This document shows positions 4,216 through 18,020 of a stretch of 64,000 bases of DNA, piece after piece. Each line of letters starts with the position of its first letter. Position 1 is the stretch's first letter. The stretch spans positions 124,001 to 188,000 of the forward strand of contig NC_014633.1 in the NCBI RefSeq assembly GCF_000165505.1, written 5' to 3'. Below the pieces are notes generated by a model, which ran no database searches, was not told the origin of the DNA, and was given only the letters and a program-made list of their open reading frames with translations. This DNA comes from Ilyobacter polytropus DSM 2926. Its GTDB lineage: Bacteria; Fusobacteriota; Fusobacteriia; Fusobacteriales; Fusobacteriaceae. A program made the translations under genes and the position numbers.

Positions 4216-4593
4216 TTGCACAAACAAAAATTTAACACCATACTTGCAATGAAATCATTTCAAAGTGTCCCTGGAATGGAAACTAATTATTTAATATTTA
4301 CTACCCCACTAGGATTTGTGAGCGGTAATTTAATATCTGAAAATGAACATGACAAAGTATCGTTTGATGCCGAAGATATATCAAAGTTAAATTTAAGTTT
4401 CGGTCTCAAAAGTTTCAATCAAGCTGCCGATAATCAAGAAAAAGATATAGAAAAAATTGATTTTACTAAAGTTATCCCACTAAAAGATGTAACTATATCA
4501 CTAGCTAATGGAAAAATAATAAATACCCCTTCGTATTTATTGTTTATTGATAGTGTTTTAGGCATCACAATTGGTAATTTGAATCTAGGATAA
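4216..4593 (+). CDS. Hypothetical protein, 125 residues
   Basis: I place the start at TTG 4216 because AAAGGAGG at 4203-4210 lies five bases upstream; the longer frame back to 4183 has no such site. The product (L/MHKQKFNTILAMKSFQSVPG ...) is soluble, beta-rich in appearance and ends SVLGITIGNLNLG. The segment with FTTPLGFVSGNLI and KVIPLKDVTISLANGKI resembles small beta-barrel-like proteins of unknown function. It is the only rightward gene among leftward phage genes and converges tail-to-tail, overlapping 9 bases, with the basic protein at 4585. It may be a moron gene. Function unknown. Confidence 0.65.
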   Translation: MHKQKFNTILAMKSFQSVPGMETNYLIFTTPLGFVSGNLISENEHDKVSFDAEDISKLNLSFGLKSFNQAADNQEKDIEKIDFTKVIPLKDVTISLANGKIINTPSYLLFIDSVLGITIGNLNLG

Positions 4594-4779
4594 GTTTTTT
4601 TTAATAGAAGACAGCAACCTATTTTTAACATCGTTTTTATTTATTTTTCTTGGCATTTCCACTTTTATAGTGACATTCTTCTTGATAAAATTTTTATTAA
4701 TATCTTCTTTAGCTTTCTCCACGCGTTTTTTAATATATCTTCTCAGTACTCTCTTTTTTCTCTTTTGAAAATTCCTCAC
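4585..4779 (-). CDS. Small highly basic phage protein
   Basis: A 64-residue protein beginning at GTG 4779, chosen because AAGGAGG lies seven bases upstream. About half of its residues are lysine or arginine (KRKKRVLRRYIKKRVEKAKE), suggesting nucleic-acid binding. It is immediately downstream of a candidate repressor operator (4805-4822), so it is probably the first gene of an early lytic leftward transcript. No family recognised. Confidence 0.55.
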   Translation of the reverse strand: MRNFQKRKKRVLRRYIKKRVEKAKEDINKNFIKKNVTIKVEMPRKINKNDVKNRLLSSIKKNLS

Positions 4780-4804
4780 TCTCTCACCTCCTTGGAATTT
4801 TGTT

Positions 4805-4822
4805 TTCTACCAATTTGTAGAA
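4805..4822. promoter_or_regulatory. Candidate phage repressor operator (copy 1)
   Basis: TTCTAC-CAATTT-GTAGAA, a perfect 6+6 palindrome with a 6-base centre. The same half-sites recur at 5060-5077, 13446-13463 and 13508-13525. It sits between the XRE gene stop and the start of the basic-protein gene, overlapping the region where a leftward promoter would lie. Confidence 0.65.
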
Positions 4823-5038
4823 CTAGTTTGTAAAAAAATATAACAAATCTATATTAGTGACATCTTTTATTATTTTTATTTGCTCCAGATTAAAAGTAAG
4901 ACGTCCGTCTTTTAAATTTTTAAGATGGTAGTGTAAATTTTGTCGGGTACATCCTATTTTATTACTTAATTCATTTTTTTTTATATTTTTTTCTTTCAAG
5001 GAATTGTTTAAAATTTCTAACACATTTGCCTCCTTCAC
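4823..5038 (-). CDS. Small XRE-type helix-turn-helix regulator
   Basis: A 71-residue protein with an HTH at residues 18-45 (ELSNKIGCTRQNLHYHLKNL), beginning MKEANVLEILNNSLKEKNIKK. Such single-domain proteins in prophages are Cro-like or auxiliary regulators. Its own promoter contains a copy of the palindrome also found at the main repressor's control region (5059-5087), so it is likely under repressor control. It lies upstream of the leftward replication genes. Whether it binds the same palindrome as the CI-type repressor is not known. Confidence 0.75.
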   Translation of the reverse strand: MKEANVLEILNNSLKEKNIKKNELSNKIGCTRQNLHYHLKNLKDGRLTFNLEQIKIIKDVTNIDLLYFFTN

Positions 5039-5058
5039 AAAATCACCTCATGTTACTT

Positions 5059-5087
5059 ATTCTACATTATTGTAGATAATACGTCAA
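5059..5087 (-). promoter_or_regulatory. Leftward promoter with operator in the spacer
   Basis: On the minus strand TTGACG (plus 5082-5087) is followed after 17 bases by TAGAAT (plus 5059-5064), a near-consensus sigma-70 promoter for the XRE gene. The palindrome TTCTAC-N6-GTAGAT (5060-5077) fills most of the spacer and the -10, so bound repressor would block RNA polymerase. The promoter at 13436-13464 has the same architecture. Confidence 0.7.
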
Positions 5088-5140
5088 ATTAATTTTTACT
5101 TTTTGTTTTTTAAAATAAAAGTTTCTTTTCTTACAAAAAT

Positions 5141-5164
5141 AAAAAAGCCCCTCTATAGGGGCTT
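5141..5164 (-). terminator. Rho-independent terminator for the membrane-protein gene
   Basis: AGCCCC (5146-5151) pairs with GGGGCT (5158-5163); in the minus direction the stem is followed by a run of T (plus A-run 5141-5146). It lies just after the stop of the gene at 5174. Confidence 0.8.
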
Positions 5165-5173
5165 AAGAAATTT

Positions 5174-5557
5174 TTATTGACTCATAATTTGTTCTAGCTC
5201 TATGAATTCCTCTTGTGTAAGAGTCCCAGATTCTTTTTTGTAATTTAGATACTTATATCTTTTTCTTTCTTTAAGAGGTTTGAGTGCTTCCTCTTCTTTT
5301 TCCTTTTCCTGAGCTATTTCCAATTCTTCCAGCCTGATTTTCTCCAAGAATTTCTTTTTTCTTTCTTCGGCTTCGGCCTTGGTTTGCTTTTGTTTTATCT
5401 CCTCTTTCACCAGATCTTCTTTGCAGAAAAGAACGATAATCATCAGCAATGGCGAAAGCAGGATAGACAGCAATAGCCAAGCACCGAAACCTCTTCCCCT
5501 GTCTGTGGCAAGTTTTGCCACAAAGAAAGAAAAAGCCAACCAAATTAAAAATAACAT
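5174..5557 (-). CDS. Membrane protein with long charged cytoplasmic tail
   Basis: A 127-residue protein with two predicted membrane helices (residues 2-15, IWLAFSFFVAKLA, and 27-45, WLLLSILLSPLLMIIVLF), connected by the short basic loop TDRGRGFG. The tail (residues 50-127) is rich in E and K and is probably a coiled coil. Such small two-helix proteins with the first helix containing a glycine-rich turn are common and of unknown role. It is monocistronic with its own terminator, consistent with a prophage moron expressed in the lysogen. Confidence 0.65.
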   Translation of the reverse strand: MLFLIWLAFSFFVAKLATDRGRGFGAWLLLSILLSPLLMIIVLFCKEDLVKEEIKQKQTKAEAEERKKKFLEKIRLEELEIAQEKEKEEEALKPLKERKRYKYLNYKKESGTLTQEEFIELEQIMSQ

Positions 5558-5728
5558 AGTATATTCCCTCCCCCTAGATTGATATGAATAAGTATACCCC
5601 GAGGATGATGCAAATTCAAATAAAGAGATAAAAATATGGAGACATTATTTTTTCTTGAAATTTCATATTTTATATGGAAAACTTACATTAAAATATATAT
5701 TAAAAAATAATTCAAAGGAGAGAAAATT

Positions 5729-6112
5729 ATGAAAAAATTAATTTTAACGTTATTACTATGTATTAGTATCACTGTTTTAGCTGTCCCACAAGCATCTCCA
5801 TGGGATAGTGTTACATATGCAGTAAAAAATTATTTGAAGGATAATGCAAACGATCCGAAAAGCATCAAATATGTAGAATGCAGCTATATACTAAAACTCA
5901 GCAACGGAGGGTGGGCTCAACGAGTTAAATTCAGAGGTAAAAATGCTTATGGTGGAATGGTTCTTAATGAATATGCATTTTTGATATCTGGAGACGGGAA
6001 CAGTGCTGTGGTTGTTTCGGCTGGTTCTATGGGTGAATTTAGTAAAGCTCTTTCATCAACAGGAGTCAGTATAGTCGGATCTTATAATCATGAAGGAAAG
6101 AAAGTAGATTAG
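5729..6112 (+). CDS. Small secreted protein, unknown function
   Basis: A 127-residue protein with a clear signal peptide (MKKLILTLLLCISITVLAVP, probable cleavage after VLA or nearby). The mature part contains VKNYLKDNANDPKSIKYVEC and WAQRVKFRGKNAYGG, a pattern shared by many short exported proteins whose role is unknown: an N-D-P-x-S segment followed by a beta-rich half with K-N-A-(Y/F)-G-G. A good ribosome site (AAAGGAGAG) precedes the ATG. It is monocistronic, convergent with the Doc gene across a shared terminator, and likely a lysogenic-conversion gene acting in the envelope. Confidence 0.75.
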   Translation: MKKLILTLLLCISITVLAVPQASPWDSVTYAVKNYLKDNANDPKSIKYVECSYILKLSNGGWAQRVKFRGKNAYGGMVLNEYAFLISGDGNSAVVVSAGSMGEFSKALSSTGVSIVGSYNHEGKKVD

Positions 6113-6124
6113 TAATAAAAAAAG

Positions 6125-6144
6125 AGCCCCGTATAGGGGCTTTT
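6125..6144. terminator. Bidirectional rho-independent terminator
   Basis: AGCCCC-GTATA-GGGGCT (6125-6141) with A-run before and T-run after. It closes the secreted-protein gene and, on the other strand, the Doc toxin gene. Stem sequence is nearly the same as in the terminator at 5146-5163. Confidence 0.8.
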
Positions 6145-6146
6145 GG

Positions 6147-6575
6147 TTATGAAATAGCATTAAAAATCTTTAATTTAAGTTCTTCTGAAAAATCCACCTC
6201 ATTTATCATAGATGTTATTATTTCTTCTAATAATTCTTTATCTATTTTTCCTGAGGCGACATGATAACTTATATTTTCCATATCTCTGATAAATCTGTCA
6301 AGCATATAAAGATAACCGTTTAAAAGTAAGAATTGTGCACCTAAAACAATTGCTATTCTTTTATTTCCATCATTAAAGGTATGAAATTTATTTGCACAAA
6401 AAAATAAATGTGTAAGTTTTTTTTCGAATGTTGGATAATAAAGATCATTTTGAATATGGGCTAAAGCACCCTCTAATATTCCCAAATCTCTTATACCAGT
6501 ATCCCCACCGCCACTGATCTGTACTGTTTTTTTATGAAGTTTTTTTACAATATCTACTGGGAAATAGTTATACAT
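6147..6575 (-). CDS. Doc/Fic family toxin (death-on-curing)
   Basis: A 142-residue protein with the Fic/Doc signature HTFNDGNKR at about residues 64-72, matching H-x-F-x-(D/E)-G-N-K-R. Doc enzymes phosphorylate EF-Tu and other Fic proteins AMPylate targets; the aspartate after the phenylalanine as seen here is typical of both. Length is close to Doc (about 126 residues) with a short C-terminal extension. It is the last gene of a leftward series: repressor, type III mod, res, DNA-binding protein, doc. No Phd-like antitoxin is adjacent; the upstream 339-residue DNA-binding protein, one base away, is the only candidate partner. It ends at the terminator at 6125. Confidence 0.85.
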   Translation of the reverse strand: MYNYFPVDIVKKLHKKTVQISGGGDTGIRDLGILEGALAHIQNDLYYPTFEKKLTHLFFCANKFHTFNDGNKRIAIVLGAQFLLLNGYLYMLDRFIRDMENISYHVASGKIDKELLEEIITSMINEVDFSEELKLKIFNAIS

Positions 6576-6576
6576 A

Positions 6577-7596
6577 TTATTCCCTTTCCTTTAAACGTTT
6601 AAATTCATCTTTATAATCTTCAAGCCTTTCCGAAAGTTCCTTACTTTTTTCACCCAAAAATCTTTCAAATTCAGCTGGTGGCAAGACAGATATATATTCT
6701 TTTAGATTTTTATGAAGTGCATCTCTGAAAGCTAGATCTCTACTAGCCATTTTTAATCTAGCTTTTTCTCTTAGTGGTTTAAATAAGACCATATTTTCAA
6801 ATTGGTGAAATAATACATCCACTTCGTGACTTTTAAGCTTTCTTCCTAATTCAATACTTTTTTTGTTTAAAATATCAGCAAAACCATACTCGTAACTTGA
6901 AATTATATCTAATATCTCACTATACATAGTATCTCTTATATTTTCAGAACTATTTAACCTTAAAATTTGACGGTATTCTTTAGCTTTTTCATTGAAGATT
7001 GATACATATATTTTATCTGTGTATATAGCATATTTAAAATTTCCCATATCTACGCAATTTTTCAACGCATCTGTAAATTCTTTTCTGTAATTTTCTTGCT
7101 GAAAATAACTTATTATGAAATCTTCATCTCTTTGATTTATATACTTTGTGCTACCGCCTGTTTTCTGATTAATAACATCTATCACAATATCTAGTATCGC
7201 ACTTCTTAGTTCTGAAGCTTTTTCACTTTCAGTAAGAAGCATACCTATGTTTAAAAATGCTCTGAAATTAAAGATACCTAATACGGTAGTTTTGGTGCCG
7301 ACATCTATGTCGGTACCACTATGCTCTTTTACTAATTCTTTTAATGTTTTTAAGCGTTTCCCACGTAAAACAACATAACCATTTTTTCCTATTTCATCTG
7401 AATTTTTTTCAATATATCTTTCAACAGTTCTTTCGTCAATCTCATAAAATTCAGCTAATTGTTTTTTTGTAAACTTTATTTCATTTTCAAAAATAAACCC
7501 CTGCACCCCAATAGCCTTTTCAATTTCTTTTAAAGCAACTGGATTATTTAATATATTCTGTCTGTCTATTTCAGAAACAGTTAAATCTTTACCCAA
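6577..7596 (-). CDS. HTH DNA-binding protein paired with Doc (possible antitoxin)
   Basis: About 339 residues from TTG 7596, chosen because GAGGTG lies six bases upstream; a GTG at 7605 overlaps that site. Residues 40-75 (FTKKQLAEFYEIDERTVERYI) are a helix-turn-helix, followed by a region with FNFRAFLNIGMLLTESEKA and LRSAILDIVIDVINQKTGG that recalls RhuM/phage antirepressor-type DNA-binding proteins. The C-terminal 100 residues are helical and charged. Proteins of this kind are often found directly upstream of Fic/Doc genes, so I infer a regulatory or neutralising role, but this is not proven. It follows res by 20 bases and precedes doc by one base. Confidence 0.65.
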   Translation of the reverse strand: MGKDLTVSEIDRQNILNNPVALKEIEKAIGVQGFIFENEIKFTKKQLAEFYEIDERTVERYIEKNSDEIGKNGYVVLRGKRLKTLKELVKEHSGTDIDVGTKTTVLGIFNFRAFLNIGMLLTESEKASELRSAILDIVIDVINQKTGGSTKYINQRDEDFIISYFQQENYRKEFTDALKNCVDMGNFKYAIYTDKIYVSIFNEKAKEYRQILRLNSSENIRDTMYSEILDIISSYEYGFADILNKKSIELGRKLKSHEVDVLFHQFENMVLFKPLREKARLKMASRDLAFRDALHKNLKEYISVLPPAEFERFLGEKSKELSERLEDYKDEFKRLKERE

Positions 7597-7624
7597 AAGA
7601 ATCACCTCTAAATCCTATTTTATA

Positions 7625-10552
7625 CTATTGTGTAATATTTCTAATTATTTTGCTCATCTCGTCCCTTTTAAATTGTGGCTTAAACTTAATATTTAAATTT
7701 CCAGCAAAAAGCTTCTCAACACATTTGATTTTCATTTTTTCTTCAGTTGATAAACCTATCTCGTCTTTGCCTTTAGATTCGACTACAAGATTTAAAGTTT
7801 CTTTACCATCTTTATATCTCACCACATAAGCAAAGTCTGGAGAGTAGGTTCCTCCTGCAACTACTGGAATTTTAATACTATTTTTAGGTATTTTAGAAAA
7901 AACTACCACTTCTGAGATATGTTCTATAATATTTTCTTTTTCAATCTCAGAGTCAAAATAGAGTTCATTGAACAGGTAGTTGCTGTCAACTTTTTCTATG
8001 CTGTTATTAACTCCTACTTCTGATGAACAGATACTTTGTTTAGCTTTTCCGATTTCATCGGTTAAGGTAGTTGGGTGAATATTTGTACTGACCTCATCAT
8101 ATGATATGAACATATTTTTCAAAGAATTTTCAATTAGGTAATCTCTATAATATTTTTGAATTTCCCTAATTGTAGTTCTGTTTAGGTAGTTGTTCAAATT
8201 GAAATTATTTTTTGATATTCCATCTTTAATTTTAATTGAACTATTCTCTTTGAGATATAAGAACATATTATGAATCATGACGAGTGGAACCTTCATTATT
8301 TTTTCCAGCTCTAATAAAAACTCTTTATAGGTTAAGTGAGACATGTTTTGAATTTTATATGACACACTTTTTTCCTCGATAAAATCTATTTTATCTCCTT
8401 TTTCCATCTTATGTACTTTCAACTTGAAACCGCTGTTTTCAAAAAGGCCATTCCCCCAAAATTCTAAAATCATATTGTTCAACAACTCTTGCTGTTCTTG
8501 GTTGCTCTTAAAGTCATATTTTATAAGTACCTTTTTATTTAGCTCTTCCCACAGTTTTTTAAATTCTAAGTATTTTTCCTGCCTCAAAGTTACTTTTTTA
8601 TCTCCATCTTTACTGCTTCTAACTTTATTTTTCTTAAGCTGTTCAAAAACTAAAGGATAGATCTCTTTTATTCTCTCAAATCCCTGATCTAAGAAATTTT
8701 GTTTTCTGTCAATTATCTTCAAGGTTTTAAGTTCATCAAAAACATCATCATCTTCTTTATTGTATGTTTTGGATATCTCTTTAAGAAGTTCATCAGTCAA
8801 AACCTTTGGTTGCTCGTCAAAAAGAGACCCGCTGTTTATCTCTTTTTGAAGATTTTCTACAAAATCTTTCTCTTCAAAATCTACAAAGTAATGGAGATAA
8901 TGTTCTTTATCGGTAACCCTATTCATATACTCATTTACCGGGATTCTTAATCCTCTTCCTACTTCTTGGAGTTTATTTGTCTCACTTCCGCTTCCACGTA
9001 GTTTACATATAACAAAGATATTGGGATTGTCCCAGCCTTCTCTTAAGGTCCATTTAGAAAATATAAACCTCCTTGGGTTATCCAAATCTAATAGGGATTC
9101 CTTATCATGGAGTATCTCGTTGACCTCTTTCTCTATTTTTTCATCACTACCACTGTTATCTTTAGAAAAGTATCCTCCATGACAGTTTCTTATATCTTTT
9201 AAGCTATCTTCTAGATATTTTTTATATTCAAGATTATTTGTTCTTTCTATTCTTGATTTTATAACCCTTTCCAGTTCCTGTTCAAAAAATATTCTTATAT
9301 GTTCCTTACTGCTGTCTTCCTGATTTCTATAGGATTCGATGGAGTCAATAAAGAAAAGAGACATTGTTTTTATCCTAGGAGAATTTACCTTAGTCATATT
9401 TTCTTCTTCTATATCAAAGTGTTTCTCTATAGCCTCTCTTATCATCTTTTCCTGTAATATTTCGCTGTAAGAATAAGGGTTAAGTTTATCTTTTTTCTTC
9501 ATCTCTATCCCGTTAGACAAAAGAGCTCTAGTTTTATTAATAGCTTCAATAGTGAGACCCTTCATTTCAGAATGGACAACTGAAAAGTCATCTTTTTTAC
9601 TAAGAGTAAAAGTCTGCTTTTTACCCAGTTCATTAATATAAATAAACTTGGCTTCTTTTCCGTCGTTATCATTTAAAACTATAGATTCATTTTTTCCGTC
9701 TTTGTTTTCCTCGATATTTACAACTATTCCCTTAACAAGATCGTTGTTAAAGGCTTTTATAGCATCGAGAGAGTAAACCAGATCATAATATTTTTTATCA
9801 AAGGTCGCTCCGTACCTAATAAGAAACTGTGGATTAAAATTCATTAGATTTTTCCATGTTTTTTTATCACTTTTAAATTTATGAGGTTCATCTATTATGA
9901 TCACAGGCTTAGTTGATGATATACCGTCCAAGCAGCAGGAAAATCTGTCAAATAATGTAACATCATATTTCTCTTCTTGAATTGTAGGGCTATTTATCAT
10001 CCCCTGGTTAATTACCAGTACATAAATACTGTTTTTATCCATCTTTGAACCTTCTATGTACTCCTTTACCTTTGGAGGGAAAGGTCTTTTAGCCGTGGTC
10101 TTTTTATTGCCACTATCTACAACTAGACAGTTGATATCTTTTTTATAAATACTGTTAAAGTGAAGTCTGCAAGCATCACTCTTTAAAAAATTAACTGTCC
10201 CGGCTTTTATTGATAGGGTGGGGACAACAACAATAAACTTGTTTAATCCATATTCTCTGTTCAGTTCAAAAATAGTTTTAGTATAGGTATAGGTTTTCCC
10301 AGTTCCTGTTTCCATATGAATATCCAAGATCAGAGGATCTCCCTCCTTATACTCTTTTTTGAGAGTGCTAAGCTTCTTTTCTCCTCTTATCCTCTCAATA
10401 TTTGAATCTATGACATCTCTGTCCTTTGCCAAATTATAGTTACTATGCGGAGTAGTCTCATATATCCCTGCATCTCTAAAGACATCCACGATAGATTCTA
10501 TGGCATCATTTTGATGTTTCAGATTATTTTCAAAATTAAGGTGTTTACTCAT
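7625..10552 (-). CDS. res: Type III restriction enzyme, Res subunit
   Basis: A 975-residue protein with superfamily 2 helicase motifs: Walker A METGTGKTYTYT at about residues 79-90, DEAD-type box IIIDEPHKF near residue 223, and later motifs around FIFSKWTLREGWDNPNIFVI and LQEVGRGLRIP (motif VI) near residues 510-560. A C-terminal PD-(D/E)xK nuclease is visible as SPDFAYVV followed by LVVESKGKDE near residues 905-935. This is the full type III Res architecture and length. With Mod it would cleave unmodified DNA between two head-to-head sites using ATP. The ATG overlaps the mod stop (ATTA-type junction at 10552), so the two are co-translated. Confidence 0.93.
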   Translation of the reverse strand: MSKHLNFENNLKHQNDAIESIVDVFRDAGIYETTPHSNYNLAKDRDVIDSNIERIRGEKKLSTLKKEYKEGDPLILDIHMETGTGKTYTYTKTIFELNREYGLNKFIVVVPTLSIKAGTVNFLKSDACRLHFNSIYKKDINCLVVDSGNKKTTAKRPFPPKVKEYIEGSKMDKNSIYVLVINQGMINSPTIQEEKYDVTLFDRFSCCLDGISSTKPVIIIDEPHKFKSDKKTWKNLMNFNPQFLIRYGATFDKKYYDLVYSLDAIKAFNNDLVKGIVVNIEENKDGKNESIVLNDNDGKEAKFIYINELGKKQTFTLSKKDDFSVVHSEMKGLTIEAINKTRALLSNGIEMKKKDKLNPYSYSEILQEKMIREAIEKHFDIEEENMTKVNSPRIKTMSLFFIDSIESYRNQEDSSKEHIRIFFEQELERVIKSRIERTNNLEYKKYLEDSLKDIRNCHGGYFSKDNSGSDEKIEKEVNEILHDKESLLDLDNPRRFIFSKWTLREGWDNPNIFVICKLRGSGSETNKLQEVGRGLRIPVNEYMNRVTDKEHYLHYFVDFEEKDFVENLQKEINSGSLFDEQPKVLTDELLKEISKTYNKEDDDVFDELKTLKIIDRKQNFLDQGFERIKEIYPLVFEQLKKNKVRSSKDGDKKVTLRQEKYLEFKKLWEELNKKVLIKYDFKSNQEQQELLNNMILEFWGNGLFENSGFKLKVHKMEKGDKIDFIEEKSVSYKIQNMSHLTYKEFLLELEKIMKVPLVMIHNMFLYLKENSSIKIKDGISKNNFNLNNYLNRTTIREIQKYYRDYLIENSLKNMFISYDEVSTNIHPTTLTDEIGKAKQSICSSEVGVNNSIEKVDSNYLFNELYFDSEIEKENIIEHISEVVVFSKIPKNSIKIPVVAGGTYSPDFAYVVRYKDGKETLNLVVESKGKDEIGLSTEEKMKIKCVEKLFAGNLNIKFKPQFKRDEMSKIIRNITQ

Positions 10553-12549
10553 TAATACCTCACCTCAACTTCAATATTGGCTCCCTTTTTGTTGTTGTAG
10601 TTCTTAATATTTTCTTCTAGTTCAACTCTATATTTTCCTATTGTATTAGTAAACCCATAGATCACTATTTTATTTATCTCAAATTCAGGATCGTTGTCTA
10701 TCTTTTCAATTATTTTACTCTGAACCTTACTAGAACTTATAGAGTCAATTAGATATAAAATCTCACCAACTCTATACCCCTCATAGATATATGTTCCCGA
10801 ACCATCTCCACCCACAACAGTTTTTTCCCAGGAAAGTTTGACTGTCTCAATTTCTGTATTCAGGAAGTTTCCATCCTGTAATTTATACGTGTGAACAAGA
10901 TCTAACCTGTCATTATTTGTTAAGGAAATATGTTCAGGTAATGTTATTTCATCTGTAAATTCAATCATTTCATCCAACTCTTTTATCTTATTATCTATTC
11001 CAAAGATCTTGAAACCAAGCTTTTTCTCCAGTTCTATCCTATCAAAATCTTCTTGATTTTTAGTCTCTTCCTCATCCAACATCTGCTTATTGGCTCTCTT
11101 GATTCTTTCGATACCTATTGAAGTGATGTTTTTAGGAAGTTTTTCTTTTTCACAAAACTTATATGCCTCGCTTTTTTGAGAAAGTTCCTCCTCAAGCTGG
11201 ACCATTATCCATTTTCTGTTCCCGCCGTCTTCCAAATTAAGCTTATTTACTGCGTGGGATGTAGTGGCAGAACCTGAGAAAAAATCAAGAATAATATCCT
11301 CATCTTTAATTCCTTGACTTAGGCAGTAGCTTATAAAATCTACAGCTTTTGGTGAAGAGAAAACTTTAGTTCCGAATAATTCCCTTACACTTTTTGTTCC
11401 AGCATCACTAGAAAAAGATTTGTCTAGCCAAAACGATTTAGCCTTTACTATTCTCTGCTCTCCATTTTGAATCAAATAATCTTTTTGATAGATATCAAAT
11501 TCATTCCTTTTATTTATATATTTCGCTTCTAATTCGTCGATTCTTTCCACTGCCGTAGCTTTTCCCCATCTCCAACAACCATCAGATCCATCTGATAGTT
11601 TAGGGTAAATTTTTATAGACCCTTCATTTTCATCTAAATAAATTTTTTTAGTCTCTTGATTATAGTAAATAGGATAGAACATTTTAGGTCTATCTTCTCT
11701 CTTTGAATTACTTCCTCTTTTTCTCAAACCTTGTAATCTATACTTTCCATTACAATCTTCTAAATCATATTCTTTAATGTAATCTTCTGGCATAGGGATT
11801 CCATAAGTAGAGTAAGATGTTGATTTTCTGTATATTAGAAGATTTTCATGAGCAGTTGCAATATATTCATCATCACTTCTTCCCTTTAAATTATTTACAA
11901 CAGCAATATTAGCAATAAAATTTTCCTCGCCAAATATCTCGTCACACATAAGTTTCAGTTGTGCCAATTCGTTATCATCTATGGATATAAAAATAACTCC
12001 ATCCTCTGTGAGAAGTTTTCTAGCCAAATACAATCTAGGAAACATAAATGTAAGCCATGCTGAATGTGAAGAGGAGTTCCCTTCCCACTTCAGTATTCTT
12101 TCCTTTTCCTCTTCATCTATGATGTTAGATCTTACAAGTTTATTAAGTTCCTTTGCGCTAAAATCCCTATTATCATTATAAACAAACTCCCCACTCTTTG
12201 TGTTGTAAGGCGGGTCTATGTAGATCATTTTTATCTTTTCTCTGTAGCCGCTATCAAGGTGTTTCAATACCTCTAAGTTGTCCCCTTTTATATAAAGGTT
12301 TTCACTGTCTCTGTTTTCCTCTTTACTGTTATGCTCCACATCCTCCCTGAGCATCTTTCTGGCTTCCCCTTGAGCCAATGCTCTGGCATATGATTTACCC
12401 AGCCAGTTAAGCCCGTAAGAGTCTTTAAAGACTTTTGTTTCAGGGCTTATAATCCACTGGAATTTTTCTAAATTAAAATTTCCATCTCTGTCGAAACACT
12501 CTGGAAATTCTTTTTTTAATATATCTATTTTCAATTTATTATTTTCCAC
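10552..12549 (-). CDS. mod: Type III DNA methyltransferase, Mod subunit
   Basis: A 665-residue protein from GTG 12549, chosen because AAAGGAG lies about six bases upstream; the longer frame to 12765 only shadows the repressor gene. Catalytic motif IV is DPPY (MIYIDPPYNTKSGEFVYND at about residue 165) and the AdoMet-binding motif I is FFSGSATTSHAVN near residue 440. That order, IV before I, marks the beta class N6-adenine methyltransferases of type III systems. The middle segment is the target-recognition region, the part that varies among homologues. Mod alone methylates; Mod with Res restricts. It starts 100 bases after the repressor stop in the same direction, so it is likely co-expressed with lysogeny. 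Confidence 0.93.
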   Translation of the reverse strand: MENNKLKIDILKKEFPECFDRDGNFNLEKFQWIISPETKVFKDSYGLNWLGKSYARALAQGEARKMLREDVEHNSKEENRDSENLYIKGDNLEVLKHLDSGYREKIKMIYIDPPYNTKSGEFVYNDNRDFSAKELNKLVRSNIIDEEEKERILKWEGNSSSHSAWLTFMFPRLYLARKLLTEDGVIFISIDDNELAQLKLMCDEIFGEENFIANIAVVNNLKGRSDDEYIATAHENLLIYRKSTSYSTYGIPMPEDYIKEYDLEDCNGKYRLQGLRKRGSNSKREDRPKMFYPIYYNQETKKIYLDENEGSIKIYPKLSDGSDGCWRWGKATAVERIDELEAKYINKRNEFDIYQKDYLIQNGEQRIVKAKSFWLDKSFSSDAGTKSVRELFGTKVFSSPKAVDFISYCLSQGIKDEDIILDFFSGSATTSHAVNKLNLEDGGNRKWIMVQLEEELSQKSEAYKFCEKEKLPKNITSIGIERIKRANKQMLDEEETKNQEDFDRIELEKKLGFKIFGIDNKIKELDEMIEFTDEITLPEHISLTNNDRLDLVHTYKLQDGNFLNTEIETVKLSWEKTVVGGDGSGTYIYEGYRVGEILYLIDSISSSKVQSKIIEKIDNDPEFEINKIVIYGFTNTIGKYRVELEENIKNYNNKKGANIEVEVRY

Positions 12550-12649
12550 TTTCTGCTCCTTTAGTCGATCTGTTATAATTCCATTTCCATTATAGCCTAT
12601 GCCCTCTCCCCTCTGCTCAAAGTAAGTCTTAACAACCCTTCTGTGCCTT

Positions 12650-13360
12650 CTACGCTTTCTCCATAATCCAAATAACCTTCCCACAGACCTTGAACTCATC
12701 ATTCTTACGAATCTCCCTTGGAGGGTAGTTCTGATTATCTGAATAAAGATAACACTTGCCGTCAAAGCACCTGTACCGTTTCACTAAGGCCTCTCCTTCA
12801 TGGATAAAGATGCCTATGTCGTTGTTGGCAACCTCGATTTCTCTTTTGACCATTACGGCATATCCGTCTTTTATAGTCGGTTCCATAGAATCTCCCCAGA
12901 CATTTATTATGACGCATCCCTCCGCCACGGATTTGGGTAGCAATAAAACATCTACTGGCTCTGGACTTGGCTCTAATCCAGAGCCAGCTGATACTGAGTT
13001 ATACACAGGAACTTGAATCATTTCTGTTGATCCTGATTTTAATTTGGAAATGGAGATGTTGGATTGGTTTTTTATATTCTTACTGTCTTCAAGTTTTCTT
13101 TCTAAGTCTTCTATTTTTTCTATTATAGGTCTTGGGGTTCTATCTCTTGAAATTAAATACCTAACTTTCTCAGATTCTTTATTATCTGAAATAAAAGCAG
13201 ATATAAATTTTTCTATAAAATCATCTTTTGGAATCCTTTCTCCAGTTTTGTAGTGACCTATTGCAGACACTGAGGCTCCCGTTGCTTGAGAAATATATTC
13301 TAATTTATAGCCTTTATCTGCCATAAAATTGCTTAAATATTTAGAAAATTCAGTTTTCAT
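12650..13360 (-). CDS. CI/LexA-type prophage repressor (S24 peptidase)
   Basis: A 236-residue protein. Residues 1-60 hold an HTH (YISQATGASVSAIGHYKTG), then a linker with a short coiled coil, then an S24 autoprotease/dimerisation domain. The cleavage site is probably the A-G in SVSAGSGLEP at about residues 122-131; the catalytic serine is in WGDSMEPTI near residue 155 and the lysine in GEALVKRYR near residue 195. RecA-stimulated self-cleavage would induce the prophage after DNA damage. The upstream region carries two palindromic operators, one inside the opposing early promoter. Two further copies occur at the XRE gene, so all four likely bind this protein. Confidence 0.9.
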   Translation of the reverse strand: MKTEFSKYLSNFMADKGYKLEYISQATGASVSAIGHYKTGERIPKDDFIEKFISAFISDNKESEKVRYLISRDRTPRPIIEKIEDLERKLEDSKNIKNQSNISISKLKSGSTEMIQVPVYNSVSAGSGLEPSPEPVDVLLLPKSVAEGCVIINVWGDSMEPTIKDGYAVMVKREIEVANNDIGIFIHEGEALVKRYRCFDGKCYLYSDNQNYPPREIRKNDEFKVCGKVIWIMEKA

Positions 13361-13435
13361 TCATTAACCACTCCATTCTTTTCTTTTACTTTACCTTAAA
13401 CAATCTATATTTTATACAAAAATGTAAAATATTGT

Positions 13436-13525
13436 TTGACATTTTTTCTACAAAACAGTAGAATTAGTTATGGGATGAATTGAAGGCAAGTTTTTTTTAA
13501 ATTTTAGCTCTACAAATAAGTAGAA
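13436..13525 (+). promoter_or_regulatory. Early rightward promoter with two repressor operators
   Basis: TTGACA (13436-13441) and TAGAAT (13459-13464) are separated by 17 bases. The palindrome TTCTAC-AAAACA-GTAGAA (13446-13463) occupies the spacer and -10. A second copy, CTCTAC-AAATAA-GTAGAA (13508-13525), lies about 40 bases past the expected start. The region (13361-13557) separates the leftward repressor operon from the rightward early operon. Confidence 0.8.
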
Positions 13526-13557
13526 AAGTTAAGGTTTTTTTTATTAAGGGGGAGCTT

Positions 13558-13755
13558 ATGAATGAAAAATTAACAAAAGTACAGATCGCTCGTGAACTCA
13601 TAAGACCATTTAAACTTACATTTATGGATATTAGAAAACATGATCTTGAGGCTCATGAAATACAATTGATAGTTAAAAATAATAAACAATATTCGGAAGT
13701 GTTTATCAGGCTACTTTTACAAGAGGTTCATAGCGGAGAGGTGAAAGGAAGATGA
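13558..13755 (+). CDS. Small early phage protein
   Basis: A 65-residue protein (MNEKLTKVQIARELIRPFKL ...) preceded by AAGGGGGAGC. The sequence is helical and slightly basic, with VQIARELIRPF resembling part of an HTH but too short to call. It is the first gene of the rightward early operon under direct repressor control, a position often taken by antirepressors or small host-takeover proteins. No family recognised. Confidence 0.6.
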   Translation: MNEKLTKVQIARELIRPFKLTFMDIRKHDLEAHEIQLIVKNNKQYSEVFIRLLLQEVHSGEVKGR

Positions 13756-13874
13756 GAAAAGGGATAAGTGGTAAGTCAGAGGTATTGGATAAGTTGGTAG
13801 CCAAGTATGGTGATATTACTGTGGTTGAAGCTATCAAGAAAGAAGAAATAGAAGAGACACTGAGGAGGCGATAA
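13752..13874 (+). CDS. 40-residue early phage protein
   Basis: An ATG at 13752 overlaps the previous stop (ATGA) and opens a 40-codon frame (MRKGISGKSEVLDKLVAKYG ... ETLRRR). AAAGGAAG lies at good spacing. Charged and helical; the segment SEVLDKLVAKYGDITVVEAI is similar to helical parts of small phage regulators. Function unknown. Confidence 0.55.
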   Translation: MRKGISGKSEVLDKLVAKYGDITVVEAIKKEEIEETLRRR

Positions 13875-13876
13875 AA

Positions 13877-14050
13877 GTGGCTATATGTAATCTTTGTGGG
13901 AACTGGATGGATAAGGTTGGAAACTGGGGAGACGGATGGACAGAGCCCTATGAAGAACTTTGGAGGTGTGAATGTGGCCAAGAGTTGGATATTAACCAAG
14001 CTTATGGAGATAGCTGGTCTATTGAAGCAGCAGAAGAAGAGGAAGATTAA
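13877..14050 (+). CDS. Small zinc-ribbon-like phage protein
   Basis: A GTG at 13877 with GAGGAGG eight bases upstream opens a 57-codon frame. Two cysteine pairs, CNLC at residues 4-7 and CEC at residues 31-33, separated by a tryptophan- and glycine-rich loop, suggest a zinc ribbon; the C-terminus is strongly acidic. Likely a small nucleic-acid or protein adaptor in the recombination operon. Function unknown. Confidence 0.6.
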   Translation: MAICNLCGNWMDKVGNWGDGWTEPYEELWRCECGQELDINQAYGDSWSIEAAEEEED

Positions 14051-14062
14051 ATATTATGGAAA

Positions 14063-14118
14063 TTTTTAGTTTTTTTAGGTCCCTCTACGGGTTAGAGGGT
14101 ACTTATCAAAAACTAAAA
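14063..14118 (+). promoter_or_regulatory. Large hairpin upstream of the exonuclease gene
   Basis: CCCTCTA (14081-14087) pairs perfectly with TAGAGGG (14093-14099) around a 5-base loop. An outer stem pairs TTTTTAGTTTTT (from 14063) with AAAAACTAAAAA (to about 14120) across an internal loop. It ends next to the ribosome site of the exonuclease gene (GGGAGG at 14121), so it may attenuate transcription or gate translation. Confidence 0.5.
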
Positions 14119-14133
14119 AAGGGAGGTCACCTA

Positions 14134-15240
14134 ATGACTGTTAAAGAGTTACAAAATGCCCTCAGGGGTAAGGTTAAAGGACTTTGGAAAATGAATAAAC
14201 CTGAACTGCTGAAAGCTTATAAGGAGCTTGAAAAGAGCCCTGAGGCAATAGTAGAAAAAGCACTTGAAGAGAAACAAATATTAAGGCCTGGAAATAGAGA
14301 AGAATGGCTTGAAATTAGAGAAGGTGGACTAGGTGGAAGTGATATTGCTGCAGTAATCGGACTTAATGAATATTCGTCAAAAATAGATGTATTTATTTCA
14401 AAGACAGCTAGAAATAATGCAGTATTGAAACAGCAATATGAGGAGAAACAAAAGAAAATTAGAGAATCTGAAGCTGTCCAGATGGGGCATGTCCTAGAAC
14501 CTGTGATAGCTGATATTTTTAAGAAAAAAAACAAAGGATATACCGTTGTAGATCTGCCAGTAACAGTAAAAGCAAACCCATGGGAAATAGCCAATGTAGA
14601 CAGATATCTAATAAATGAAAAAGGAGAGGTGGGAATACTAGAAGTTAAAACAACTACTCTCTATAACAAAGATAAGTGGGAAGGTGACAGCTGTCCTCGT
14701 AATTATCTCTGCCAGGTCCTTTGGTACCTTGGGATAACAGGCCTGAAATATGCTTATATCTGTTGTCTAATAGGTGGACAACATTACAGACAATTTAAAA
14801 TAGAAAGATGTGAGGAAACAATTAATTATCTTAGAACAGAAGGGAGGATCTTTTGGGAGGACCACGTTATCCATAATATAGTCCCGGAGCCAGATGGGAG
14901 CTCCTCCTATACAGAGCACCTTCAATTTTTAGCAGATTATGCTGAAGATAAGGGAGAAAAAATCGAAGTTGAAGCAGCTGCAGATAAAGTTGAAACCTAC
15001 GAGGAACTTATTGAACAAAGAAAAGAACTCGATAAAAAAATTGAGAAAATTAAACAGGAAGTGTTTAAAGAAGCAATAGAGCGGGGATCTAAACGAGGAC
15101 TTTGGGGGAGACGTAAGTTTAGTATTCAAGGAGGTCCTTACAAAGGATTTGACAGTAAAAAGTTCAAATTTGAAAATCCAGATTTATATGAGCAATATCT
15201 TGTAGAAAAAACGAAAAGACAATATATAAAATTATCTTAG
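14134..15240 (+). CDS. YqaJ/lambda-Exo family phage exonuclease
   Basis: About 368 residues from ATG 14134, which follows GGGAGG; the longer frame back to 14056 runs through the hairpin. An N-terminal helical region (residues 1-60) precedes the nuclease core: REEWLEIREGGLGGSDIAAVIG (residues about 68-90), QMGHVLEPVIADIF, then NVDRYL with the metal aspartate and EVKTTT with the E-x-K pair near residue 175, and YLCQVLWY. These are the catalytic residues of the lambda exonuclease (YqaJ) fold, which degrades the 5' strand of duplex ends to leave 3' overhangs. It is followed after 12 bases by recT, its usual annealase partner. The C-terminal coiled coil (residues 290-330) may mediate oligomerisation. 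Confidence 0.9.
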   Translation: MTVKELQNALRGKVKGLWKMNKPELLKAYKELEKSPEAIVEKALEEKQILRPGNREEWLEIREGGLGGSDIAAVIGLNEYSSKIDVFISKTARNNAVLKQQYEEKQKKIRESEAVQMGHVLEPVIADIFKKKNKGYTVVDLPVTVKANPWEIANVDRYLINEKGEVGILEVKTTTLYNKDKWEGDSCPRNYLCQVLWYLGITGLKYAYICCLIGGQHYRQFKIERCEETINYLRTEGRIFWEDHVIHNIVPEPDGSSSYTEHLQFLADYAEDKGEKIEVEAAADKVETYEELIEQRKELDKKIEKIKQEVFKEAIERGSKRGLWGRRKFSIQGGPYKGFDSKKFKFENPDLYEQYLVEKTKRQYIKLS

Positions 15241-15252
15241 GAGGAATCATAA

Positions 15253-16119
15253 ATGGCAGAAAAGATAGCTAAAAATGACATTATACAAAAGGCAGCAACT
15301 AACAGATCTGTAACTAAAAAGAAAAGTAACAGCATATATGACCTTATCTCAAGCGATAAGATGAAAAGCCAGTTTGCTATGGCATTACCAAAACATGTTG
15401 ATACAGAAAGGTTTGTAAGAATAGCTCTTACATGCATCAGACAGAATCCAAAATTGGCAGAATGTAGCAGAGAAAGTCTATTGGGTGCTCTTATGACATC
15501 TTCTCAACTTGGATTAGAACCCGGTGGAGTATTAGGGCAAGCTTACTTAATTCCATTCTCTGTTAAAGGGCAAATGGAATGCCAATTTCAAATTGGGTAT
15601 AAAGGTATGTTGGAGCTTCTAAGGAGATCAAAACAACTTTCAAATATAAGAGTTCACACAGTATATGAAAATGACGAGTTTGAAATAGGTTATGGATTAG
15701 ACTGTACTCTTAATCATAAACCAGTTTTTAAAAACAGAGGAAATATGATCGGATTTTATTCCGTTGCGGAGCTAAAAGACGGTTCAAAACAATTTCATTT
15801 CATGTCCTATGATGATGTAGTAGAGCACGAAAAAAAGCATAGGAAAGGAAATTACCAAAGTAATGTATGGAAACAACATTTTGAAGCTATGGCACATAAA
15901 ACAGTAGTTAAGCAACTTATGAAGTGGCTGCCTGTTTCGGTTGAGTATCTTGAAATGGCTTCTAAAGACGAGGGCGTATATAAAGCCAGTGAAGAAAACC
16001 TTAAGGACGTTACTGAGGAAGTAGTAGCTCCAACTTTAGATTATGATGAAGATACCGGAGAGATAATGGAATCTGAGGATAATTCAGCTGACAACGTCAT
16101 AAGTGACGTTTTTAAATAG
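15253..16119 (+). CDS. recT: RecT-family single-strand annealing protein
   Basis: A 288-residue protein of the RecT family. Diagnostic segments are ALTCIRQNPKLAECSRESLL, the GLEPGGVLGQAYLIPF core at about residues 92-107 and QFQIGYKGMLELLRRS. An acidic C-terminal tail (residues 245-288) is typical and may bind single-stranded DNA-binding protein. With the YqaJ exonuclease it forms a phage homologous-recombination pair that repairs or circularises replicating phage DNA. The ribosome site is TAGGAGGAATC. Length and order are normal for the family. Confidence 0.93.
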   Translation: MAEKIAKNDIIQKAATNRSVTKKKSNSIYDLISSDKMKSQFAMALPKHVDTERFVRIALTCIRQNPKLAECSRESLLGALMTSSQLGLEPGGVLGQAYLIPFSVKGQMECQFQIGYKGMLELLRRSKQLSNIRVHTVYENDEFEIGYGLDCTLNHKPVFKNRGNMIGFYSVAELKDGSKQFHFMSYDDVVEHEKKHRKGNYQSNVWKQHFEAMAHKTVVKQLMKWLPVSVEYLEMASKDEGVYKASEENLKDVTEEVVAPTLDYDEDTGEIMESEDNSADNVISDVFK

Positions 16120-16184
16120 ATGTGGAGGGTGGGTTCCAGTCTGCCTTCCTAGATAAAAATTTTGTCTGGAGGTTTTTAAGGGGT

Positions 16185-16487
16185 ATGGATTGGACTAAGG
16201 AAAAGATAAAGAAACTGAAAAAGATGAGAACAGAAGGGGTACATTACTACGGGATTGGGCTTGTCCTGGGGTGTTCTGAAAATGCTGTCAGGCAGGCTGT
16301 ACAGAAGTTTATTTTCAAGCCTGGGAGACCTAGCAAAACTGACAGCAGGATAGATATGTCAAAAAGGAAAGTAGCTCTGAGAAGCGGTAGCCAGTACGCC
16401 CTTCACGACTTAGGGTTGCCTAAAAACACCTTTGTGGGGTGGGCTATGAAGGGAGATATACCGAAGGACTTTATAATCGTATTTTAG
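16185..16487 (+). CDS. HTH phage protein
   Basis: About 100 residues from ATG 16185; GGAGG lies 12 bases upstream and an extra AAGGGG is directly adjacent, so the start is not certain (the frame stays open back to GTG 16122). Residues 3-45 (WTKEKIKKLKKMRTEGVHYY, then LGCSENAVRQAVQKF) are a Myb/sigma-like helix-turn-helix. The rest is basic with GWAMKGDIPKDFIIVF at the end. Probably a DNA-binding regulator in the recombination operon. Confidence 0.6.
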   Translation: MDWTKEKIKKLKKMRTEGVHYYGIGLVLGCSENAVRQAVQKFIFKPGRPSKTDSRIDMSKRKVALRSGSQYALHDLGLPKNTFVGWAMKGDIPKDFIIVF

Positions 16488-16494
16488 AAGTGAT

Positions 16495-16548: not shown

Positions 16549-16560
16549 GAGGGATTATAT

Positions 16561-16749: not shown

Positions 16750-17838
16750 ATGCCAGTCTATAAAGATGGTAAAAAATGGAGAGTTGTATACACTTTTAAT
16801 CAGTGTGGCGAATTAAAACAATCCCAAAAGAGAGGTTTCAAAACTAAAAAGGAGGCCTCTCTTTGGGAGAGTGAACACAAGCTCAAAGGAAGTAAGTCAG
16901 TTAATATGACATTCACTTCCTTTTATGACTTATATATGGGAGATATAAAACCAAGAGTTGCTGAAACTACATATCATTTGAAGGAGTTAATATTCAAAAA
17001 TAGCATTCTTCCTTATTTTCAAAATATGAAGATGTCGAAAATAACACCTATAATAATCAGAGATTTTCAAAATAAATTGATCACAGGGACTAATCCAAAA
17101 ACTGGGAATCCTTATAAGGCACACTATATACAAAAGATTAATGCTCAACTTTCGGCACTTATGAACCATGCTGTGAATTTCTATGAACTTAAAGAAAACC
17201 CATGTAAAAAAGCAGGGCCTTTAAAATTAAGATATGATAAAAAAATAAACTTTTGGACATTAGAAGAGTTTGAAAAATTTACTGAGGTTATAGAACATAA
17301 GCCAATGAGTTATACAGCTTTTAATATCCTATTTTGGACAGGAATAAGAGTTGGAGAACTTCTAGCCTTAACATTAAGTGACGTAGATCTCAAAAAAGGA
17401 ATTATGAAAATAGATAAATCTTATGCTAGATTAAAAGGGAAAAATATAATTAAATCAACTAAAAATGAAAGCAGTGAAAGAACTATAAAGCTGCCTCAAA
17501 ACTTGGTTGAATTGCTAAAAAAATATGTTAAAATGATGTATGGATTAACCCAAGAAGACAGACTTTTTCCAATGACTAAAGAAGTCTTTAAAAATGATCT
17601 TGTAAGGTATTGTGATAAAGCAGGTGTGAAAAAAATTACGCCTCACGACCTGAGACATTCTCATGCTAGTTTGTTGATAAATTCAGGAATAAACCCACTA
17701 GCTATATCAAAGAGACTTGGACACGCTAAAGTGGATATGACATTGAATACTTATTCTCATCTATACCAATCTACAGAGGATAAAATGATTGAGTTATTGG
17801 AAGAGGTCAGTGGCAAAGTTTTGGCAAAGAAAAATTAA
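16750..17838 (+). CDS. int: Prophage tyrosine integrase
   Basis: A 362-residue integrase of the Tn916/lambda type. Residues 1-55 are an AP2-like arm-binding domain (MPVYKDGKKWRVVYTF), residues 60-160 the core-binding helices and 175-350 the catalytic domain: first arginine in FWTGIRVGELLAL at about residue 200, the H-x-x-R box in HDLRHSHASLL near residue 298, LGHAKVD near 327 and the nucleophilic tyrosine in TLNTYSHLY near 340. All catalytic positions are present. The gene ends about 100 bases before the tRNA-derived attachment site, the normal position for the integrase at one prophage end. Confidence 0.95.
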   Translation: MPVYKDGKKWRVVYTFNQCGELKQSQKRGFKTKKEASLWESEHKLKGSKSVNMTFTSFYDLYMGDIKPRVAETTYHLKELIFKNSILPYFQNMKMSKITPIIIRDFQNKLITGTNPKTGNPYKAHYIQKINAQLSALMNHAVNFYELKENPCKKAGPLKLRYDKKINFWTLEEFEKFTEVIEHKPMSYTAFNILFWTGIRVGELLALTLSDVDLKKGIMKIDKSYARLKGKNIIKSTKNESSERTIKLPQNLVELLKKYVKMMYGLTQEDRLFPMTKEVFKNDLVRYCDKAGVKKITPHDLRHSHASLLINSGINPLAISKRLGHAKVDMTLNTYSHLYQSTEDKMIELLEEVSGKVLAKKN

Positions 17839-17878: not shown

Positions 17879-18020
17879 ATAAGAACCATTGAAAATAAAG
17901 GGATACAGAATATATAAAAAGTTGCCAAAGTATGGTAAGGTAGAGGTCGCCGGTTCGACTCCGGCAGGTGGCACCACTGAAAATAACACTTAGAGCAGGA
18001 CTTCGGTTCTGCTTTTTTTT
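17879..18020 (+). repeat. Attachment-site repeat copy 1: tRNA 3' end plus terminator
   Basis: 17941-17976 reads as the 3' part of a tRNA: T-stem GCCGG (17949-17953), loop TTCGACT, stem CCGGC, acceptor strand AGGTGGC, A and CCA (17974-17976). No matching 5' acceptor strand (GCCACCT) exists upstream, so this is not a whole tRNA. A terminator hairpin with a TTCG tetraloop follows (17994-18013, T-tract to 18020). The segment is repeated in direct orientation at about 44342-44482. The tRNA identity is uncertain; the variable-loop form is threonine-like. Confidence 0.8.
17994..18020 (+). terminator. tRNA-type rho-independent terminator
   Basis: AGCAGGAC and GTTCTGCT form an 8-pair stem with one G-T pair around TTCG, followed by eight T. 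It would originally have terminated the tRNA gene and now stops transcription out of the integrase gene. Confidence 0.85.

What the first reader, a model, noticed from the sequence alone, without database searches (positions are those of the whole stretch)
6147..13360. Lysogeny operon carrying type III restriction-modification plus a Doc module
The CI/LexA-type repressor, mod, res, a DNA-binding protein and doc are all leftward with gaps of 0-100 bases. The defence genes are placed to be expressed from the repressor transcript, that is, in the lysogen. A combination of restriction, toxin and repressor in one prophage unit suggests a compact system excluding competing phages and stabilising the prophage.
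Basis: partly seen in the sequence, partly recalled or inferred. Interest (0 to 1): 0.62.

Follow-up and report, generated by a model that had tools for sequence, protein, structure and literature searches.

The report
Prophage defence cassette behind its repressor
A dormant virus in a bacterial genome carries, directly behind the gene that keeps it dormant, a DNA-cutting defence system and a paired toxin module, so the host cell is probably guarded against other viruses while the dormant virus stays put.

Summary
Five leftward genes (S24/LexA-type repressor, mod, res, a 342-aa DNA-binding protein, doc) lie at 6147-13360 with gaps of 100, -1, 19 and 1 bases. They sit in a complete 42.3-kb prophage (tRNA-Thr att repeat, empty site in a sister genome). 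The "lysogeny operon" reading gains strong support. Four copies of the repressor operator TTCTAC-N6-GTAGAA lie in two pairs at the two ends of the region, on promoters of identical geometry. A terminator follows doc, and no terminator was found between repressor and mod. This is the layout of lambda OL-rexBA-cI-OR. The five genes are not one conserved unit, however. A sister prophage holds unrelated cargo in the same slot. Mod-Res is of the EcoP1I/EcoP15I family. The last two genes are PADLOC's untested candidate PDC-M59, an invariably paired module in many phyla (83/83 loci), usually inside R-M operons, and it follows a repressor in two other kinds of phage element too. Its first protein is not Phd and not RhuM; it has a KilA-N/antirepressor-like DNA-binding fold. 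Best reading: a lysogen-expressed two-layer defence, restriction plus an abortive Doc kinase held by M59A. The activity steps are inferred. Verdict: a new member of a known kind.

The parts
12650..13360 (-). CI/LexA-type prophage repressor, 236 aa; N-terminal HTH, S24 domain with Ala-Gly, Ser and Lys of self-cleaving repressors
   Evidence: Pfam Peptidase_S24 9.3e-25; phrog_4; motifs at residues 125, 156, 193; conserved in sister repressors
10552..12549 (-). mod, type III methyltransferase of the EcoP15I/EcoP1I family, 665 aa, probable GTG start
   Evidence: PADLOC MTase_III 3.2e-151; PDB EcoP15I Mod 4e-94
7625..10552 (-). res, type III restriction helicase-endonuclease, 975 aa, full length
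   Evidence: PRK15483 6.6e-290; EcoP15I Res 8.8e-230; phage P1 Res 42.8% identical over 100%
6577..7605 (-). M59A: DNA-binding partner of Doc (342 aa; family start probably TTG at 7596, 339 aa)
   Evidence: PADLOC PDC-M59A 8.5e-109; KilA-N/antirepressor-like fold
6147..6575 (-). doc: Fic/Doc kinase-type toxin, PDC-M59B, motif HTFNDGNKR
   Evidence: Pfam Fic 2e-10; PDC-M59B 8.9e-39; TIGR01550
6125..6141 (-). intrinsic terminator of the leftward operon, 6 bases behind the doc stop
   Evidence: folds at -11.3 kcal/mol, z -2.6, followed by UCUUUUUUU
13446..13463 (+). repressor operator OR (TTCTAC-N6-GTAGAA, perfect)
13508..13525 (+). second OR operator (1 mismatch); weaker third site at 13412-13429 (2 mismatches)
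5060..5077 (+). OL operator (1 mismatch) on the leftward early promoter
4805..4822 (+). second OL operator (perfect)
13436..13464 (+). PR-like rightward early promoter TTGACA-17-TAGAAT, overlapped by the operator (offset 10-27)
5059..5087 (-). PL-like leftward early promoter TTGACG-17-TAGAAT, overlapped by the operator in the same register
4823..5038 (-). small Cro-like HTH gene, first gene from PL
   Evidence: ORF; phrog_2439 and phrog_8, transcriptional regulators, weak; counterpart in the sister prophage at L191:14242-14442
5729..6112 (+). small gene with a signal-peptide-like start, cargo inside the immunity region, convergent with doc
   Evidence: ORF; phrog_21933, unknown function
5174..5557 (-). 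small membrane-protein-like gene with its own terminator at 5145-5164
13558..16487 (+). early genes from PR, including YqaJ exonuclease (14056-15240) and RecT (15253-16119)
16750..17838 (+). integrase
   Evidence: phrog_1 6.6e-78
17932..17976 (+). attR: 3' part of tRNA-Thr; 18-bp core ATGGTAAGGTAGAGGTCG identical to attL at contig C2:99619-99636
   Evidence: empty site in a sister genome

Best explanation
This is the immunity region of an intact temperate prophage, organised like lambda OL-rexBA-cI-OR, with a horizontally acquired defence cassette in the rex position. In the lysogen the repressor holds PR and PL shut at TTCTAC-N6-GTAGAA operators. The repressor's own leftward transcript (inferred) reads on through mod, res, M59A and doc and ends at the terminator 6 bases behind doc. 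Layer one is an EcoP1I/EcoP15I-type III R-M enzyme that methylates host and prophage and cuts unmodified incoming DNA (inferred from full-length homology and intact motifs). Layer two is the PDC-M59 pair: a Doc-family kinase held inactive by its invariable, translationally coupled DNA-binding partner M59A, and released when infection or loss of restriction disturbs that hold, arresting the cell (inferred). SOS cleavage of the repressor would open PR and PL for induction. Shown here: gene content, motif integrity, operators, terminator, att site, M59A-Doc pairing, slot variability. Inferred: the continuous transcript, restriction activity, M59A as inhibitor/sensor, and phage exclusion.
For: Operators: TCTAC-N6-GTAGA occurs 7 times in the 3.13-Mb genome and 4 of these bracket this operon, chance about 1e-6. 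Both promoters carry the operator in the same register. Terminator behind doc, none between repressor and mod. Complete prophage: tRNA-Thr att with an empty site in the sister genome, terminase, portal/head and tail genes. The sister prophage G041 keeps the same frame (RecT 87%, replication gene 93.5%, repressor 62%, own palindromes at both ends) but different cargo in the slot. G052 has a repressor of this family followed by another type III R-M. M59A-Doc follows the repressor in streptococcal satellite phages and, with a repressor-like HTH gene upstream, in prophage contig L086. M59A is followed by Doc in 83/83 loci, mostly overlapping by 1 or 4 bases; their distance matrices correlate at r=0.75 against at most 0.19 in 500 permutations. 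R-M association 54/85 against 5/43 controls, p=2e-8. One Doc is fused to a TIR domain, as expected of a defence effector. Precedents: BstA lies behind cI in a mosaic hotspot (PMC8585504); Doc and RhuM-Doc in R-M loci were proposed as multilevel defence (PMC3710099); DarTG inside a type I R-M island that is functional (PMC12255303).
Against: No good consensus promoter was found for the repressor operon itself (best 8/12). A perfect TATAAT with a poor -35 lies in the 100-base gap before mod (12589-12617), and in phage P1 mod and res have promoters of their own, so a transcript independent of the repressor is possible. The tandem AlphaFold model gave no confident M59A-Doc interface: the conserved M59A C-terminus stayed under pLDDT 55, so M59A as inhibitor is unproven. 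About a quarter of M59 loci with full flanks show no R-M by these tests (10/37), so a functional link to restriction is not obligatory. The sister prophage's slot genes gave no defence hit.
Confidence: 0.62

Rival explanations
1. Independent cargo: mod-res and M59A-doc were inserted behind the repressor by chance and are driven by their own promoters, as mod and res are in phage P1; the repressor transcript is irrelevant.
For: P1 mod and res have their own annotated promoters. A TATAAT lies at 12589-12594. G+C falls stepwise from the repressor (36.6%) to mod 33.4, res 31.4, M59A 28.8, doc 27.5, so the cassette is foreign to the prophage.
Against: No promoter of 9/12 or better on the - strand between the repressor and mod, and promoter-like hits in the region are at chance level (43 against 39.3 in shuffles). 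No terminator before mod. The slot between OL and OR recurs as a cargo site, and repressor-M59 order recurs in other elements.
Confidence: 0.3
2. Selfish stabilisation: R-M and M59-Doc act mainly as addiction modules that kill cells losing the prophage, with phage exclusion secondary.
For: Doc-type toxins and R-M systems are known addiction modules (general knowledge; P1 phd-doc). The pair is obligate and translationally coupled.
Against: M59 is mostly found in R-M loci of cellular genomes, not on plasmids (0 of 72,556 plasmid records), the opposite of a typical addiction module. M59A has no similarity to known labile antitoxins in Pfam.
Confidence: 0.2
3. M59A is primarily a transcription factor or antirepressor of the lysogeny circuit, with Doc as a by-passenger.
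For: The N-terminal half resembles phage antirepressor/KilA-N proteins (27% identity to a Paenibacillus phage antirepressor, E 1e-6; viral fold hits).
Against: In 83/83 loci M59A is followed by Doc, mostly far from any phage circuit and inside R-M operons. The whole 340 aa is conserved across phyla, not only the DNA-binding half.
Confidence: 0.08

Closest known systems
PDC-M59 (PADLOC phage defence candidate, M59A + M59B)
   Same: Both genes match their models over nearly full length and are adjacent in the defined order.
   Different: PDC-M59 is an untested prediction; here it stands in a prophage immunity operon behind an EcoP-type mod-res rather than inside a type I or a mod-M59A-doc-res operon.
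EcoP1I / EcoP15I type III R-M (phage P1 and P7 mod-res)
   Same: Full-length Mod and Res, same domain order and gene order; in P1 also prophage-borne and directly behind a lysogeny gene (lxc, a C1 modulator).
   Different: About 43% identity; no M59 pair in P1 at this place; P1 mod and res have annotated promoters of their own.
Lambda rexAB / BstA type cargo in the prophage immunity region
   Same: Same slot: behind cI, codirectional, bounded by a terminator, between two operator-bearing promoters (PMC8585504).
   Different: Cargo proteins are unrelated; here it is a 6.4-kb R-M plus Doc cassette.
phd-doc of phage P1
   Same: Doc motif HxFxD(A/G)NKR and Doc fold (3dd7, TM 0.77 by target length, rmsd about 2.9, for relative L073).
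   Different: No Phd; the partner is a 340-aa KilA-N/antirepressor-like protein.
RhuM-Fic/Doc proteins in R-M loci (PMC3710099) and DarTG inside type I R-M (PMC12255303)
   Same: A toxin or toxin-antitoxin pair embedded in R-M operons; Doc in R-M neighbourhoods was proposed as multilevel defence.
   Different: M59A is not RhuM (no PF13310 hit; profile comparison 2% probability) and not DarG.

Membership tests
Type III R-M, EcoP1I/EcoP15I family | Mod: N6-adenine MTase with DPPY and FxGxG-type motifs plus EcoP15I C-terminal domain | tested here: met
   N6_N4_Mtase 5.6e-32, T3RM_EcoP15I_C 3.3e-13; DPPYNT at 112, DFFSGS at 422; EcoP15I Mod 4e-94
Type III R-M, EcoP1I/EcoP15I family | Res: SF2 helicase plus C-terminal PD-ExK endonuclease | tested here: met
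   ResIII and RE_endonuc domains; TGTGKT, DEPH, PDFAYVV, VVESK; EcoP15I Res 8.8e-230
Type III R-M, EcoP1I/EcoP15I family | ATP-dependent restriction and methylation of an asymmetric site | not testable with these tools
   needs methylome or enzyme assay
PDC-M59 | M59A and M59B homologues, adjacent | tested here: met
   8.5e-109 and 8.9e-39; 1-base gap
PDC-M59 | anti-phage activity | not testable with these tools
   no paper in the library mentions PDC-M59
phd-doc toxin-antitoxin | Doc motif HxFx(D)(A/G)NKR and Doc fold | tested here: met
   HTFNDGNKR; Doc structures as fold hits for a relative
phd-doc toxin-antitoxin | Phd antitoxin upstream of doc | tested here: not met
   the upstream partner is M59A, with no Pfam hit and a KilA-N/DdrC-like fold
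RhuM-Fic/Doc | RhuM domain (PF13310) | tested here: not met
   no Pfam hit; no PF13310 match in the genome; hhalign probability 2.2
Lambda-type immunity-region cargo (rexAB/bstA slot) | codirectional behind cI, between operator-controlled PL and PR, ended by a terminator | tested here: met
Lambda-type immunity-region cargo (rexAB/bstA slot) | transcribed with cI in the lysogen | not testable with these tools
   no expression data
Self-cleaving (SOS-inducible) S24 repressor | Ala-Gly cleavage site with Ser/Lys dyad | tested here: met
   AG at 125, GDSM at 156, VKRY at 193; conserved in relatives

The most novel reading that the evidence does not exclude
M59A is a new kind of Doc controller: a phage-antirepressor-derived (KilA-N/DdrC-like) DNA-binding protein that holds a Doc kinase on DNA and releases it when the linked restriction enzyme is blocked or foreign DNA or breaks are sensed, so that type I, type III and BREX-like systems as well as prophage repressor operons share one plug-in abortive-infection back-up.
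Probability: 0.3. Interest if true: 0.72.

Novelty: new member of a known kind. Interest (0 to 1): 0.45.

Why it matters
It gives a concrete, fully delimited example of a prophage immunity region used as a defence cargo slot in the Fusobacteria-type host, with operators, promoters, terminator and att site defined. It also points to PDC-M59, a very conserved, widely transferred and untested Doc module that plugs into several restriction systems, as a ready target for experiment. Whether R-M-embedded toxins act as guards of restriction is an open question that this module makes testable.

Tried and rejected
Near-DNA searches of phage and plasmid collections gave nothing. M59A as a RhuM relative: rejected. 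M59A as a relative of a solved structure by sequence: none (best E 0.19). AlphaFold of an M59A-Doc tandem (a relative, L073, in which the genes are in frame and the stop was read through) to see an interface: no confident interface, inconclusive. A (S/T)xxxE(G/N) Fic-inhibitory motif in M59A: S-x-x-x-E near residue 202 is conserved, but the last position is not and this protein has K there; set aside. The strong hairpin at 12954-12988 in the repressor gene as a terminator: rejected, since it lacks a T run and encodes the conserved linker at the cleavage site. Literature: no paper on PDC-M59. Rfam found no RNA family in 4000-19000. Co-inheritance of M59 with one R-M type: rejected, since R-M type changes about 21 times on the M59A tree.

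Full report
WHAT IS THERE. The window is contig C2:124001-188000 of a 3,132,314-base genome in three contigs. The five genes are all present and leftward: repressor 12650-13360, mod 10552-12549, res 7625-10552, a 342-aa protein 6577-7605, doc 6147-6575. Family searches give S24 repressor, type III Mod and Res, PADLOC PDC-M59A and PDC-M59B/Doc. Catalytic motifs of Mod, Res, Doc and the self-cleaving repressor are intact.

THE PROPHAGE. IMG/VR holds it as a 42,095-base viral contig (L084). An 18-base repeat ATGGTAAGGTAGAGGTCG lies at window 17932 (94 bases behind the integrase stop) and at C2:99619. The left copy is in tRNA-Thr(ggt), which stays intact; the right copy is its duplicated 3' part. 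In sister genome G041 the left flank (C2:111721-112657) and the tRNA end (112636-112727) are contiguous, i.e. an empty site. Terminase, portal/minor head, head and tail proteins are encoded on the left side, RecT, YqaJ and integrase on the right.

IMMUNITY REGION. TTCTAC-N6-GTAGAA with up to one mismatch occurs at 4805, 5060, 13446 and 13508; a weaker site (two mismatches) is at 13412. Without the outer bases the pattern occurs 7 times in the whole genome, 4 of them here; the chance of 4 or more of 7 in a stretch of 42.3 kb is about 1e-6. The 13446 site covers a TTGACA-17-TAGAAT promoter facing right (13436-13464) and the 5060 site covers a TTGACG-17-TAGAAT promoter facing left (5087-5059), in both cases from base 10 to base 27 of the promoter. 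The leftward promoter precedes a small HTH gene and the replication genes. That this is the repressor's operator is inferred from position and symmetry. Between the two promoters lie repressor, mod, res, M59A and doc, then a terminator 6 bases behind the doc stop (6141-6125, -11.3 kcal/mol), and two small cargo-like genes. This is lambda's order OL-rexB-rexA-cI-OR. In the 100 bases between repressor and mod there is no terminator and no promoter of 9/12 or better; a TATAAT with a poor -35 remains.

THE SLOT IS VARIABLE. In G041 (same genus) a sister prophage has RecT 87%, YqaJ 87%, replication gene 93.5% and repressor 62% identical, its own palindromes AAAGTAWA-N7/8-TWTACTTT at both ends, but seven unrelated genes (one a staphylococcal-nuclease homologue) between repressor and the small HTH gene. 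In G052 a repressor of this family (46%) is followed by a different type III mod-res and then by a PDC-S18 gene. In G054 a repressor (43%) is followed by a Ser/Thr kinase similar to PD-T4-6. A published parallel is BstA, behind cI and presumed to share its promoter, in a mosaic hotspot (PMC8585504).

MOD-RES. Res matches EcoP15I Res over its full length (8.8e-230) and phage P1 Res at 42.8%; Mod matches EcoP15I Mod. In P1 the same system lies directly behind lxc, a C1 modulator, but with annotated promoters of its own. Within 96 genomes of the order only distant Res relatives and no second M59A occur, and G+C falls through the cassette, so it is an acquisition.

M59A-DOC. One scan of 84,980 genomes found 225 relatives of M59A; the best 80, at about 60-67% identity, come from at least ten phyla, with five further non-self loci from viral contigs. 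In all 83 loci whose contig continues, Doc follows, mostly with a 1- or 4-base overlap; 80 keep H-x-[FY]-x-D-G-N-K-R. M59A and Doc distance matrices correlate at r=0.75 against at most 0.19 by permutation. Type I or III R-M genes lie near 54 of 85 (control 5 of 43, p=2e-8), BREX-like genes near 5, none found near 26, mostly on short contigs; the control set is viral contigs, so the comparison is rough. In type III loci the usual order is mod-M59A-doc-res, unlike here, and the R-M type changes about 21 times on the M59A tree, so M59 is a plug-in. Without R-M, M59A-Doc stands between an XRE-type regulator and the integrase of streptococcal satellite phages Javan313 and Javan319, and behind a 110-aa repressor-like HTH gene in prophage contig L086. 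One Doc (L061) is fused to a TIR domain.

WHAT M59A IS. It is not Phd and not RhuM. The AlphaFold model (mean pLDDT 74) resembles viral KilA-N/antirepressor proteins and, among solved structures, the DNA-binding protein DdrC of Deinococcus (E 3.6e-3, probability 1.00, TM 0.41 by target length). Residues 286-342 are among the best conserved but are not confidently modelled, alone or in tandem with Doc. Such a tail would suit a Doc-binding element, but the tandem model does not show it.

MECHANISM. Shown: anatomy, motif integrity, operators, terminator, pairing, slot variability. Inferred: transcription with cI, restriction, M59A holding Doc, release on infection, phage exclusion. The multilevel idea is published for R-M loci with Doc (PMC3710099), and an island with a toxin-antitoxin pair inside a type I R-M protects against phages (PMC12255303).

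VERDICT. Observation confirmed, interpretation partly supported, a new member of a known kind. The most interesting part is the uncharacterised M59 pair.

Noticed in passing
window 1737-2327 and 2324-2989 (-): A DnaB-like helicase is split into two ORFs overlapping by 4 bases, matching phrog_19 positions 400-581 and 160-399; natural split or frameshift not decided.
   Followed up: no
L061:11021-11965: A Doc of the M59 family is fused to a C-terminal TIR_2/SEFIR domain (Prevotellaceae).
   Followed up: partly
L192:7351-14856 (G052): S24 repressor followed by a different type III mod-res pair and a PDC-S18 gene, in an element that also encodes a ParA-like protein.
   Followed up: partly
L193:7250-12118 (G054): S24 repressor followed by a Ser/Thr kinase like PD-T4-6, two unknown genes and a gene matching PDC-M21C (phosphatase-like start) on the other strand.
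   Followed up: partly
L191:7391-14127 (G041): Cargo slot of the sister prophage: two unknown proteins of 424 and 456 aa, a secreted nuclease and a lipoprotein-like gene, with no defence hit.
   Followed up: partly
L115 and L116 (Streptococcus satellite phages Javan319, Javan313): M59A (annotated CiaB protein) and Doc lie between regulator and integrase with no R-M; in Javan319 the Doc ORF (8253-8705) is not annotated.
   Followed up: yes
L064:1122-5098 and other type III M59 loci: A helicase-like protein (about 1000 aa) and a DUF4391 protein recur upstream of mod in type III M59 loci, perhaps a further part of that defence operon.
   Followed up: no
window 18255-18629: A repeated element of about 375 bases right of attR, with about 12 copies at 90% identity in sister genome G041.
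   Followed up: no
L002:12533-13453 (contig C2:102533-103453): A radical-SAM-like protein is encoded near the left end of the prophage.
   Followed up: no
contig C2:43966-44430 (L133): A second prophage in the same genome has a repressor 38-41% identical over its first 165 residues.
   Followed up: no
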